Positions 38,210 through 43,635 of a stretch of 64,000 nt of DNA are shown here, in pieces. Numbering within the stretch: the first letter of the stretch is position 1; every line of letters begins with the position of its first letter. The stretch is taken from positions 62,001 through 126,000 of the forward strand of contig CAMCZZ010000005.1 of the NCBI GenBank assembly GCA_945888375.1, in the 5' to 3' direction. A program made the translations under genes and the position numbers. The stretch is from Akkermansia muciniphila (GTDB lineage Bacteria > Verrucomicrobiota > Verrucomicrobiia > Opitutales > Opitutaceae). Below the pieces are notes generated by a model, which had not been told where the DNA came from, searched no databases, and saw only the letters and a list, made by a program, of their open reading frames with translations.

Positions 38210-39499
38210 TTGGCCTTGGAAAATCGCTGCCTGCCGGTTTGCGGCTGCGACTCCGACTTTGACGACTCCTGCGAGATCGGTCGAGGTCTTGGCAGCTTGA
38301 GATCTCTGCATGGCATTTTCTCTTTGGGCTCTTCGGTTACCTTCCTGGCCGTCCCTGCGACCGTTTCCGCTGCTTATGATCCACCGGCGGGCTACTACTC
38401 GACCGCTGCTGGCTTGAGCGGGGCCGCCCTAAAAACGGCCCTGCATAACCGGATCAAGGGGCACACCGTCCTTCCTTATACGTCCGGCTCTACCGATGTA
38501 TGGGACGCGTTGACGGTTCTGGATGCCGATCCGAAGAACCTCGCGAATGTGTTGCTGCTTTATTCCGGCGAAAGCCGGAGCAACGCCTTACGGGAGGGTT
38601 CCGCTTCCGGGAACACGTGGAATCGCGAGCACGTATGGGCTCTTTCCCGAGGCCCGGGAACCACTTCTACCGTGCCCGGCACGGATGTTTTCCATCTCTT
38701 TGCGTGCGACACCACGGTGAACGCGAACCGGGGTAACCAGCCCTACGATGAGGTATCCTTTTTACCTGATCCCGAGGCGTCCTCTTCGGGAAGTAATGGT
38801 TCCTCTTGGAATCCCCGCGATGCGGACAAGGGGGTCATCGCGCGGGCCCTTTTTTACATGGCCGTGCGCTACGAGAGTGATGACTCGGTGAATCTCGAAC
38901 TGGCCGAGACCGCCGGCACCACCACGCTTGGCAAGCTCTCCTCCCTGCTCGCCTGGCACCGCGAATTCCCGCCCACCGAGGCCGAGCGGAAACGCAACCA
39001 CACGATCTACACGACCTATCAGTTCAACCGCAACCCGTTCATCGACAACCCGCTGTTCGTCGATCAGGTGTTTTCCAACGATACGCCGGGAGGGGCGTGG
39101 AAGCGGGCGCGCTTCACGGCGGCGCAGCTTACCAGCACGGCGGTCTCGGGCGACGCGGCGGATCCAGATGGGGACGGATGCCCGAATCGGTTGGAGTATT
39201 TATTTAACACGAATCCGCTGCTGGCGGAGACTTCGGGCGAGGCGGCGACGACGGTGGCCTGGTTGCCGCCGGCGGGGGGGGGCGGGACGGCGCGCCTGGC
39301 GCTGAGCCACCGCCGGCAGCGCTACGCGACCGATCTGGTGGTGACTTACGAGGCTTCGGCGGATTGCGCCACGTGGGCGGTCTTCAGCCCGGCGACGACC
39401 GCGACCGTGTATGTGGACGGATTGACAGACCGGGTGACGGTCGAGACGCCTTTCACGGGGGAGCGGCGGTTTCTGCGAGTCCGGGTGGAGCGGCCTTGA
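38210..39499 (+). CDS. Endonuclease I / NucM-like secreted nuclease
   Basis: GNTWNREHVWALSRGPG...DVFHLFACDTTVNANRGNQPYDEV...NRNPFIDNPLFVDQVF. Confidence 0.85.
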   Translation: MALENRCLPVCGCDSDFDDSCEIGRGLGSLRSLHGIFSLGSSVTFLAVPATVSAAYDPPAGYYSTAAGLSGAALKTALHNRIKGHTVLPYTSGSTDVWDALTVLDADPKNLANVLLLYSGESRSNALREGSASGNTWNREHVWALSRGPGTTSTVPGTDVFHLFACDTTVNANRGNQPYDEVSFLPDPEASSSGSNGSSWNPRDADKGVIARALFYMAVRYESDDSVNLELAETAGTTTLGKLSSLLAWHREFPPTEAERKRNHTIYTTYQFNRNPFIDNPLFVDQVFSNDTPGGAWKRARFTAAQLTSTAVSGDAADPDGDGCPNRLEYLFNTNPLLAETSGEAATTVAWLPPAGGGGTARLALSHRRQRYATDLVVTYEASADCATWAVFSPATTATVYVDGLTDRVTVETPFTGERRFLRVRVERP

Positions 39500-39523: not shown

Positions 39524-39781
39524 TCAGTCGTTGAACTCGTCGCGCTTGCGGACGCGTTCGGCCTCGAGCTCGGCGGCGATGACGGGGTCGTGTTCGGCGA
39601 GACGCTTGCGCAGATCGTGTTCCTTGCGCCGGAGATCCTCGTAGCGTTGTTCGAGCATGATCTCGTGCTCCTGCTGTTCGGCGACTTTATCCATCAGGAC
39701 GGCTTCGGATTGTTCGACGAAGGCTTCGCGTTCTTTCAGGGCGGCGCGGGCCTCTTGCAGGGAGGCTTCCTGGGCGTCTAG
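39524..39781 (-). pseudogene. C-terminal fragment of coiled-coil protein split by the IS110-family element
   Basis: LDAQEASLQEARAALKEREAFVEQSEAVLMDKVAEQQEHEIMLEQRYEDLRRKEHDLRKRL; upstream sequence is IS end; fits in frame to 41258-41762. Confidence 0.7.
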
Positions 39782-39831
39782 ATACCATGACGGCGACAAG
39801 TTGGGATCGGTGATCCAAACTCGTCAGCCGT

Positions 39832-40905
39832 ATGAATACCAAAAACAACATCGGAAAGCAGGTTAAACGGGTGCTCGAAAGCAAGAGTGCGCAGGTGAAG
39901 CTGGGCATCGACCAACACGCCCGCGACGTGGTGGTGAGCATGCAAGAAGACGGAAGCGTGCCGCAACGCGCGCAGAAGATGCAGGCCGACGATCTGCTCG
40001 CGTTGGTGCGCGGGCTGGTCGGAGGAGGCGTCAAGGTGTTCGCTTGCTACGAGGCCGGCCCGTGCGGTTATTGGTTGCATCGGGCCTTGGTCGCCGCCGG
40101 TGCCACCGCCTACGTCATCGTGCCGAAGCCGCTGGGCGGTGCCAGACAGCAAAAGACCGATCAGCTCGACGCGATGGCCTTGTGCGACGCGCTTGACCGC
40201 TACGTGCGCGGCAACGTGAAGGCGTTCACCGTGGTGACGGTGCCCAGCGAAGAGGCGGAGCAAAAACGAGTCCGTGGCCGCGTTCGCAATCAGCTTCAGC
40301 AAGAGCGCGGACGCATGGCCGCCAGAGGCCGCAGTCTGTTGCTCAGCCAGGGCCACCACGTTGAAGGCATCTGGTGGGGCCGGGGTAAATGGGAGCAGCT
40401 AAAGGAAAAACTGCCCGCTTGGCTGGTCTCGTGCCTAGAGGAGATTCGAGCCCTCTTGCTGAAAGCCGACGAGCAGGAAAAGGCCCTGCGCAAAGAACTC
40501 GAAGCCGACGCCGAGAACGCCCCACGCCCCAAAGCGATTGGAGCGCTTACGTGGACGATGCTCAGTCGCGAGCTCGGCGATTGGTCACGGTTCAAAAATC
40601 GGCGACAGGTTGCGGGCTACACCGGTCTGTGTGCGGGCGTCTCCCAGTCCGGCACACATCAGCGCGACGGCTGCATCAACCGGTGCGGCAACCCGCGGGT
40701 GAGGGCGCTGCTGATCGAGGCGGTCTGGCGCTTGTCGATGTGGCAGCCGCAATACGCGCCGGTGAAGAAACTCGCCGACGGCATCGCCCGTGGCGCGGCC
40801 CGGCGCAAACTCGCGGTGGCGGCGGCGCGACGGTTGGCCATTGACCTGTGGCGACTGGCAACCGGCAAAACCACGCTTGAGAAGCTCAACCTCGTGCCCG
40901 CGTAA
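39832..40905 (+). CDS. IS110-family transposase (DEDD N-terminal domain plus Transposase_20 domain)
   Basis: VKLGIDQHARDVVVSMQEDG; CYEAGPCGYWLHRAL; KTDQLDAMALCDAL; QVAGYTGLCAGVSQSGTHQRDGCINRCGNPRVRALLIEAVWRL. Confidence 0.93.
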   Translation: MNTKNNIGKQVKRVLESKSAQVKLGIDQHARDVVVSMQEDGSVPQRAQKMQADDLLALVRGLVGGGVKVFACYEAGPCGYWLHRALVAAGATAYVIVPKPLGGARQQKTDQLDAMALCDALDRYVRGNVKAFTVVTVPSEEAEQKRVRGRVRNQLQQERGRMAARGRSLLLSQGHHVEGIWWGRGKWEQLKEKLPAWLVSCLEEIRALLLKADEQEKALRKELEADAENAPRPKAIGALTWTMLSRELGDWSRFKNRRQVAGYTGLCAGVSQSGTHQRDGCINRCGNPRVRALLIEAVWRLSMWQPQYAPVKKLADGIARGAARRKLAVAAARRLAIDLWRLATGKTTLEKLNLVPA

Positions 40906-41250
40906 AACCGCCTCGAAACCACCCCTGTTCTTTGACCCCGCCTAAATCACTTTCGGAGTGGAGCGCGCACGTTGCTACCCTTGGGTGCCAAACCCGCCCT
41001 TTAGATTGTGCCGCTCACTCCGTCCCACTTCGGCTCCGCTTTCGGACCGCATAACGTAACTTGCGCTGGCACCACCACGCGCGGATAGCAGGTTGGCCCG
41101 GGGCGTCGCCCTTGGGTTGGGACGCGAGACACTTCCATCAAGACTTCGCGCGGGGCGCTCGCCGCCCCCGCACCCCAGGCGGGGTAACTAAAACCCTAAG
41201 AAAACAAAAACATCAGATCCGCATACGATCCACTCTTGACCACGCGCCAT
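40906..41250 (+). ncRNA. Candidate bridge RNA / seekRNA region of the IS element
   Basis: Long structured-looking 3' non-coding tract; contains ATAGCAGGTTGGCCCG (41085-41100) matching the right junction 14/16 and GGGCGTC (41101-41107) matching the left target flank 7/7. Confidence 0.5.
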
Positions 41251-41257
41251 CATAGCA

Positions 41258-41762
41258 GGGTGGCGCGTAGTTTTTCCAGTGCGGCGGTCTCCTCGGCGCT
41301 GGCTGCGACGGGCGGGAGGGTGGGGGCCCGGCGTTGGGCCGAGATCACATGTTCACGGGCGAGGAGGAGGTTTTCCAGCTCGGCCATTTCGCGTTCGCGC
41401 TCGGCGAGTTTGGCCTGGACGTCTTCGAGGCTTTGTTCGCGTTCGTTTATTTCGATCTGTCGCTGGCGTAGGAGTTGTTCCAACTCGATGAGTCTCTGCT
41501 GGTCCGCCGGGCCGGAGGAGGCGCCCGGCAACGAGGAGTAGCCGAACGGCGCCCGGCTCAGCATCCGATTCTCGAGCCGGCGTTGCATGGCGGGAGAGGC
41601 GCCGGCGCAGGCGAGTGAAATGAGTCCGCCGCTGGGTTGGCTGGAGCCACCGAGGTTGGGGCGGCGGGGCAGGGTAAGTTTAAGGGCCGGTCGCGGTGGC
41701 GGCACGACCGGAGGGCGGGGTCGCGGCGGGGTCGGTGAAGGCGTCGGAGCGGGCTCGGACAT
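41258..41762 (-). pseudogene. N-terminal fragment of Pro-rich/coiled-coil protein disrupted by the IS
   Basis: MSEPAPTPSPTPPRPRPPVVPPPRPALKLTLPRRPNL... then coiled-coil LIELEQLLRQRQIEINEREQSLEDVQAKLAEREREMAELENLL...; terminates at the IS boundary (LRATLL*). Confidence 0.7.
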
Positions 41763-42747: not shown

Positions 42748-43635
42748 TCAAGCGATGGGCGGATTGTTTAGCAATTCCTCGGCCAGATGCTCATAGTCGC
42801 GCACGACGTTATCGCCGGCGGCCTCTTGTCCGAGCAATGCGACAGGCATGCCAAGGGCGACGGCGCGGCGGACTACCATGGCATCGCGCACGAAGGCGGT
42901 GAGGATGCGGGCGTCCTTGGCGGTGCGTTTGGCGGCCTTAAACTGGTTCAGGCGCAGCTGCATCCGCATCCGCGGCACTTCGATGTCCACGCCGGTTTTG
43001 ATCGCATTAAAGATGATGCCGTTGACCTGCGGGGCGGGTCCCATGCTGGCTTGGCGGAAGCTGGCGGAGAGCTGGTGGAAGCGACCGAGTTTCTCGATCA
43101 GCAGGGTGAAGCCGATGAGCGAAAGGGCATCCGGGTTGGCGGGCACGTAGATCTCGTTGGCGCTGAAGATGCCGCATTGGGAGGCGCGCAGGATATTGGG
43201 CGGGCAGTCGAACAGGATGAGGTCGTAGTCTTTTTCGAGTTCGGCGATCTGCTCCTGGAAAATGAGGTAGGGCGGTCGCTTGGGGTCGCCGGTATATTCA
43301 CTTTCCAAATCGACTAGGTTGAAGGTGGTCGGCACCAGATCCAGACCGTGGAGGGGTTTGCCGCTGGTTTTATCGGTCACGACGTCGCGGATCACGAGGT
43401 CGCGGAGGCGGACCTTGGCGGGGTCAAAAATCGAGAGAAGGGCGCCTTCTCCGGTCGAGTTGATCGGGTTCCAACGGTCGAGCTTCAGCAGCCAGATGGA
43501 GGCGTTGGACTGGGTGTCGAAATCGCAAATCAGAACCCGCTGCCCGAGGCGGGCGAGGCAGGCGGCGGTATTGATAATCAGGGAGGTCTTCCCGACGCCG
43601 CCCTTGTAGTTAATGAATGCGAGCTTGCGGGCCAT
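42748..43635 (-). CDS. ParA/MinD-family ATPase (orphan, no ParB nearby)
   Basis: FINYKGGVGKTSLIINTAACLARLGQRVLICDFDTQSNAS (deviant Walker A); YDLILFDCPPN. Confidence 0.9.
   Translation of the reverse strand: MARKLAFINYKGGVGKTSLIINTAACLARLGQRVLICDFDTQSNASIWLLKLDRWNPINSTGEGALLSIFDPAKVRLRDLVIRDVVTDKTSGKPLHGLDLVPTTFNLVDLESEYTGDPKRPPYLIFQEQIAELEKDYDLILFDCPPNILRASQCGIFSANEIYVPANPDALSLIGFTLLIEKLGRFHQLSASFRQASMGPAPQVNGIIFNAIKTGVDIEVPRMRMQLRLNQFKAAKRTAKDARILTAFVRDAMVVRRAVALGMPVALLGQEAAGDNVVRDYEHLAEELLNNPPIA

What the first reader, a model, noticed from the sequence alone, without database searches (positions are those of the whole stretch)
39780..41267. IS1111-like IS110 element with guide-like segments in its 3' non-coding region that match its own insertion junctions
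Seen: the 3' non-coding tract holds ATAGCAGGTTGGCCCG (41085-41100), which matches the right element/target junction ATAGCAGGGTGGCGCG (41252-41267) at 14/16. The next 7 nt, GGGCGTC (41101-41107), match the left target flank GGGCGTC (39772-39778) exactly. A weaker match, GGTAACTA (41183-41190), resembles the reverse complement of the left junction (GGTATCTA). Element tips are 7 nt (AGATACC) left and 3 nt (AGC) right of a subterminal inverted repeat. Established: IS110/IS1111 elements encode a structured bridge RNA/seekRNA that base-pairs with donor and target DNA, in the 3' region for IS1111-type members. Inference: this is a self-contained programmable-insertion RNA whose guide still records this target. 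Caveat: in known bridge RNAs the two target guides pair with opposite strands, so same-strand matches need structural modelling.
Basis: partly seen in the sequence, partly recalled or inferred. Interest (0 to 1): 0.75.

Follow-up and report, generated by a model that had tools for sequence, protein, structure and literature searches.

The report
IS1111-type transposon with bridge RNA

Summary
The element is real: 39780-41256, intact IS110-family transposase, 7- and 3-nt tips, clean insertion in a minus-strand gene (joined flanks are collinear with intact genus homologs). Its 3' tract encodes a bridge RNA (seekRNA), as inferred, but most guides were misplaced. A permutation-controlled scan of RNA against target flanks in 21-31 related elements finds two target guides: 40973-40981 (complement of the right flank) and 40999-41004 (left flank plus AG core). 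ATAGCAG (41085-41091) is genuine, but guides recognition of the element's own right end and changes with it. The other donor guide is at 41055-41061, not 41183. The fold shows compensatory changes; a model of it finds 35 of 42 held-out homologs. One base beyond the core, the left target guide matches the element (26/26) and the left donor guide matches the target (28/32): handshake-like, so ATAGCAGG does read the insertion junction. Two copies in one genome differ at one guide base and its target base. Known kind, new member; expression and activity untested.

The parts
39780..41256 (+). IS1111-type insertion sequence (1477 bp); ends ambiguous by 2 nt because AG is present at both junctions
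   Evidence: Tips and sub-terminal repeats; flanks join into an unbroken frame collinear with genus homologs; same kind of tips in relatives
39832..40905 (+). transposase, 357 aa, IS110 family RNA-guided transposase; D27, E74, D110, D113 and S273-G274 invariant in the close relatives
   Evidence: PF01548 + PF02371; NCBIfam NF033542; alignment A1
39780..39786 (+). left tip AGATACC (7 nt), read by the right donor guide
   Evidence: tip variants AGATACC/AGATGCC/AGATGAC go with guide variants GTA/GCA/TCA
39787..39795 (+). left sub-terminal inverted repeat ATGACGGCG
   Evidence: 8 of 9 against the right repeat, by eye
41245..41253 (-). right sub-terminal inverted repeat (CGCCATCAT on +)
41254..41256 (+). 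right tip AGC (3 nt), part of the sequence read by the left donor guide
   Evidence: co-change with the guide in relatives
40950..41137 (+). bridge RNA / seekRNA core (true 5' and 3' ends not determined)
   Evidence: Consensus fold with 41 pairs, 14 with compensatory change, 0/500 shuffles; model R1 finds it in 35 of 42 held-out homologs
40955..41021 (+). target stem-loop: helix 40955-40970/41008-41021, apical hairpin 40982-40985/40993-40996, internal loop holding both target guides
40973..40981 (+). right target guide (TGCTACCCT), complementary to the right flank AGGGTGGCG incl. core AG (7 Watson-Crick + 2 G.U)
   Evidence: z 7.6-8.5 in the scan, 0 of 300 permutations; mean 7.6/9 vs 5.3 shuffled; held-out set 1 of 40320 permutations
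40999..41004 (+). left target guide (CTTTAG), same sense as the left flank GTCT + core AG
   Evidence: z 7.1, 0 of 300 permutations; 3.05 of 4 vs 1.70 shuffled, 0 of 20000
41005..41005 (+). handshake-like base A just 3' of the left target guide; equals the third base of the element's left tip, not of the target
   Evidence: 26 of 26 elements, null 19.2, 1 of 20000; mostly one clade-level change
41055..41061 (+). right donor guide (CGTAACT), complementary to the left tip AGATACC (5 of 7); core part not conserved in relatives
   Evidence: co-variation with the tip, few independent changes; core positions variable
41062..41083 (+). donor helix 41062-41069/41075-41083 between the two donor guides
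   Evidence: four core pairs kept with compensatory changes in 33 elements
41085..41091 (+). left donor guide ATAGCAG, same sense as the right tip plus core AG
   Evidence: co-varies with the right tip: ATAGGAG (L145, L146), ATATTAG (L154, L158), ATCATAG (L153), ATAACAG (L120)
41092..41092 (+). handshake-like base G just 3' of the left donor guide; follows the third base of the right target flank, never the element's own tip base
   Evidence: 28 of 32, null 22.9, 4 of 20000; cognate match 0 of 26; held-out 6 of 8
39772..39779 (+). left target flank GGGCGTCT
41257..41265 (+). right target flank AGGGTGGCG

Best explanation
An IS1111-type insertion sequence whose 3' non-coding tract encodes a bridge RNA. 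[quoted passage not shown] The two target guides and the left donor guide include the AG core; the right donor guide includes it in this copy but not in many relatives. The transposase with this RNA would bring the circularised ends and the target together and exchange strands at the core, leaving no duplication. Single bases just 3' of the left target and left donor guides match the other DNA partner, as handshake guides do in IS621, and so would favour the exchanged (inserted) state or help recognise the integrated junctions for excision. Shown here: anatomy, clean empty site, conserved RNA fold, guide-target and guide-donor co-variation, natural reprogramming. Inferred from published work on IS1111/IS110: transcription, binding by the transposase, recombination, and the meaning of the handshake-like bases.
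For: Domains and family. Empty site collinear with genus homologs, no duplication. Only the two target-guide windows beat all permutations in a scan of 231 RNA columns against both flanks. Right guide: 27 of 32 elements have at least 7/9, 10 have 9/9, null 5.26 +/- 0.19. Held-out elements: 66 of 72 vs 44.9 expected, 1 of 40320 permutations. Left donor guide co-changes with the right tip. Handshake-like bases. Fold with compensatory changes; covariance model finds 35 of 42 held-out homologs and 0 of 8 distant ones at 27-34% identity. In G021 two copies with 99% identical RNA differ at one guide base and the matching target base; the guided sequence TGGAGGGGCAYG is a host repeat (179 sites, reversed control 1). 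Published model: PMC11187229, PMC11208160, PMC11208158.
Against: No expression data. The left target guide of this copy has only two plain matches in four before the core. The right donor guide is 5 of 7 and L161 departs from the rule. L005, L028, L106, L120 and L134 fit poorly, unexplained (truncated, composite or wrongly ended copies are possible). The sub-terminal repeat is short (8/9). Permutations do not remove shared ancestry. The fold of this one sequence alone is only mildly stable (z -1.6).
Confidence: 0.94

Rival explanations
1. One reading: the whole of 41085-41107 guides target choice, and 41183-41190 the donor.
For: String matches exist; ATAGCAGG is a true reading of the right junction.
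Against: No target co-variation of 41093-41107 that survives the scan, only a weak single-window excess, part of it due to base 41092; same-sense matches to both flanks do not fit opposite-strand pairing; 7-mer sharing is common by chance.
Confidence: 0.02
2. The RNA is real, but this copy is a fossil or mis-programmed copy that no longer moves and sits at a secondary or drifted site.
For: Single copy in the genome; target pairs with wobbles and a mismatch; the two exact sites TTTAGGGTAGC are unoccupied, in a repeat.
Against: Transposase open and conserved; RNA fold intact (though this sequence was in the model); G.U pairs may be tolerated; of 6349 AG sites in the window only 10 pair fully with the eight-nt right guide and 2 of those also have 3 of 4 left pairs.
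Confidence: 0.35
3. The transposase alone reads target and ends; the conserved RNA fold is regulatory.
For: No binding test here.
Against: Co-variation with target and tip at the positions the bridge model predicts, including one-base co-change between two copies in one genome.
Confidence: 0.02
4. The handshake-like signal at 41092 reflects pairing inside the RNA (AGG of the left donor guide with CCT of the right target guide) rather than pairing with the target.
For: Both segments change with the target, so they also change with each other.
Against: Would not explain the matching signal at 41005 with the element tip; not tested by structure.
Confidence: 0.2

Closest known systems
IS1111-family seekRNA elements (ISEc11, ISPa11, ISKpn4; PMC11187229)
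   Same: RNA downstream of the transposase gene, 7/3 nt tips, no target duplication, top-strand-pairing guide before bottom-strand-pairing guide, targets in repeats (ISPa11 in REP), natural redirection between relatives
   Different: Different host lineage (Opitutaceae and other Verrucomicrobiota) and targets; shorter sub-terminal repeat; here donor guides and handshake-like bases are also placed by co-variation
IS621 bridge RNA (IS110 group; PMC11208160, PMC11208158)
   Same: Two loops, four guides, core dinucleotide in the pairings, opposite strands for left and right target guides, handshake logic (match to the other DNA, mismatch to its own)
   Different: RNA at the right end, not the left; guide order within both loops reversed (right before left); handshake-like bases follow the left guides (bottom-strand pairing), whereas IS621 has them next to the right guides (top strand); donor guides flank a helix inside a larger multiloop

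Membership tests
IS1111 group of IS110 elements | DEDD transposase with Transposase_20 domain | tested here: met
   PF01548 34.0 bits (cutoff 29), PF02371 58.3 (21.3), NF033542 165.8 (140)
IS1111 group of IS110 elements | Long non-coding region downstream of the transposase gene | tested here: met
   351 nt, 40906-41256
IS1111 group of IS110 elements | Tips of 7 and 3 nt, no target duplication | tested here: met
IS1111 group of IS110 elements | Sub-terminal inverted repeat of 11-13 bp, perfect or near perfect | tested here: inconclusive
   8 of 9 bp at the expected place, then diverging (by eye)
Bridge RNA / seekRNA | Two short segments pairing with opposite strands of the target, IS1111 order | tested here: met
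Bridge RNA / seekRNA | Segments pairing with the element ends (donor) | tested here: met
   left donor guide clear; right donor guide weaker
Bridge RNA / seekRNA | Conserved secondary structure with guide loops | tested here: met
Bridge RNA / seekRNA | RNA made, bound by the transposase, needed for movement | not testable with these tools
   needs experiment

The most novel reading that the evidence does not exclude
In this IS1111 lineage the handshake bases sit on the bottom-strand-pairing (left) guides, the mirror image of IS621, which together with the reversed guide order suggests that the bottom strands are exchanged first; in addition target guides, and the donor guide with its right tip, are naturally reprogrammed, tracking host repeats base by base.
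Probability: 0.3. Interest if true: 0.6.

Novelty: new member of a known kind. Interest (0 to 1): 0.42.

Why it matters
It adds an IS1111 lineage whose guides can be read from sequence alone, a covariance model that detects it, and natural reprogramming pairs (L006/L138, L145/L146) that make good test cases for a less-studied branch of programmable recombinases. If the handshake-like bases on the left guides hold up, they make strand-exchange order in IS1111 directly testable.

Tried and rejected
IS621-type handshake positions next to the right donor guide: no signal (41062, 41063), and next to the right target guide the base is T in 28 of 32, not the G that would pair with the tip. Second base past the left donor guide (41093) and past the left target guide (41006): no significant signal. 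Rfam gathering search of the window: only tRNAs. Profile search of solved structures with the four-sequence alignment: no match at 1e-3. A consensus fold of 33 diverse elements keeps only ten pairs, so the detailed fold rests on the ten closest relatives. Fixed-column right-guide scoring underestimates matches because the aligner slips by a base in several elements; rescored with +/-2 shifts applied equally to shuffled pairings. Plasmid and viral collections gave only distant relatives. I could not check ISfinder for a named copy, nor see the published figure of IS1111 donor guides. The ~280-nt repeat holding the exact guide matches was not identified (Rfam no match; Pfam call failed).

Full report
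Observation. The strings and coordinates in the finding are correct. The element runs from 39780 to 41256, tips AGATACC and AGC, with AG shared by both junctions. The 357-aa transposase (39832-40905) matches PF01548, PF02371 and NCBIfam NF033542 above cutoff. Joining the flanks gives an unbroken minus-strand frame (...EKLRATLDAQEASLQ...) that runs collinearly with genes in two genomes of the same genus, L166 and L167, so insertion added and removed nothing. There is one copy in the genome.

Where the target guides are. I collected relatives, fixed their ends from conserved tips, and took 33 with both RNA and right end (22 with a left tip). Every RNA column was compared with every flank position, in both senses, against shuffles of elements and flanks. 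Two signals stood out for 4-, 6- and 8-nt windows: RNA around 40972-40981 as the antiparallel complement of the right flank, and 40997-41002 in the same sense as the left flank; none of 300 permutations reached the best windows. I had already seen these candidates by eye when the scan was run, but the scan itself treats all columns alike. No window at 41093-41107 survived. With the register allowed to slip by two, the right guide matches 7.6 of 9 on average (null 5.26, sd 0.19, maximum 6.06 in 20000 shuffles). The left guide matches 3.05 of 4 (null 1.70).

This copy. RNA TGCTACCCT pairs with AGGGTGGCG through seven Watson-Crick and two G.U pairs. The left guide CTTT against GTCT has two matches, one wobble and one mismatch, then the AG core. 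Of 6349 AG sites in the window, ten pair fully with the eight-nt right guide and two of these also have three of four left pairs. Exact sites TTTAGGGTAGC occur twice in the genome, both inside a ~280-nt repeat near contig starts. So the guide fits the present site, but not best.

Donor side. The right donor guide (41055-41061) varies with the left tip: GTA with AGATACC, GCA with AGATGCC, TCA with AGATGAC; these are few clades, the core part is not conserved, and L161 does not follow. The left donor guide ATAGCAG is nearly invariant in the first set. In held-out elements found by the covariance model it changes together with the right tip: ATAGGAG, ATATTAG, ATCATAG, ATAACAG. For each of these I read the string in the RNA and then searched downstream for the same string after CAT, so this is a directed check rather than a blind one. 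The right-guide match in the same held-out elements was tested by exact permutation (66 vs 44.9, 1 of 40320); the eight include two sister pairs.

Handshake-like bases. The base just 3' of the left donor guide (41092) equals the third base of the right target flank in 28 of 32 elements (null 22.9, 4 of 20000) and never the element's own third tip base (0 of 26); held-out 6 of 8. The base just 3' of the left target guide (41005) equals the element's third tip base in 26 of 26 (null 19.2, 1 of 20000) and almost never that of the target (1 of 32). For 41005 most variation comes from one clade (L008, L028, L151, L155), whose tips I assigned with a looser motif. In IS621, handshake guides next to the right guides pair with the other DNA after top-strand exchange (PMC11208158). 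Here the signal is on the left guides and absent from the IS621-type positions. Inserted junctions are also the substrate of excision, so these bases may serve that step. I noticed this signal after the main analysis, and it was not corrected for the number of positions looked at; it deserves independent testing.

Structure. In ten close relatives the consensus has 41 pairs, 14 with compensatory changes, none of 500 shuffles as good, and sliding the partners destroys it. Ten pairs persist over 33 diverse elements (93% of cells paired). The target guides lie in one internal loop, the donor guides on either side of a helix in a larger multiloop.

Natural reprogramming. In genome G021, L006 and L138 have 99% identical RNA, guides CATGCCCCT and CGTGCCCCT, and right flanks AGGGGCATG and AGGGGCACG. 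TGGAGGGGCAYG is present 179 times there against 1 for the reversed control, so these copies are aimed at a host repeat with both alleles. L145 and L146 show a similar one-base co-change.

Comparison. Order, location and tips follow published IS1111 seekRNAs (PMC11187229) and the bridge model (PMC11208160). The element is a new member of that kind. Limits: shared ancestry is not removed by the permutations; poor-fitting elements (L005, L028, L106, L120, L134) are not explained; transcription, binding and activity are inferred.

Noticed in passing
G000:C7:1-285, G000:C16:100-380, G000:C26:33684-33832, G000:C7:149244-149293 (L177, L178): Roughly 280-nt repeat of the host, at least partly at contig ends; two copies hold the exact sequence TTTAGGGTAGC programmed by the window's bridge RNA. 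Nature of the repeat unknown.
   Followed up: partly
G021:C1:299698-358576 and elsewhere: TGGAGGGGCACG occurs in dense clusters on both strands (179 exact TGGAGGGGCAYG sites in the genome), a REP-like host repeat targeted by two IS copies.
   Followed up: partly
window 41183-41241; L007 and L153 downstream of RNA: A-rich tail (TAACTAA...AAGAAAACAAAAAC) between the RNA and the right end, similar in some relatives; role unknown. A -35-like TTGACC follows in the right end, possibly part of a circle-junction promoter.
   Followed up: no
L120 1325-1385 (oriented on the transposase strand): Two left ends 50 bp apart in tandem, a possible double insertion or abortive event.
   Followed up: no
window 38210-39499, 42748-43635: Neighbouring genes: a possible endonuclease I-like protein and a ParA-like ATPase (by eye from translations).
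   Followed up: no
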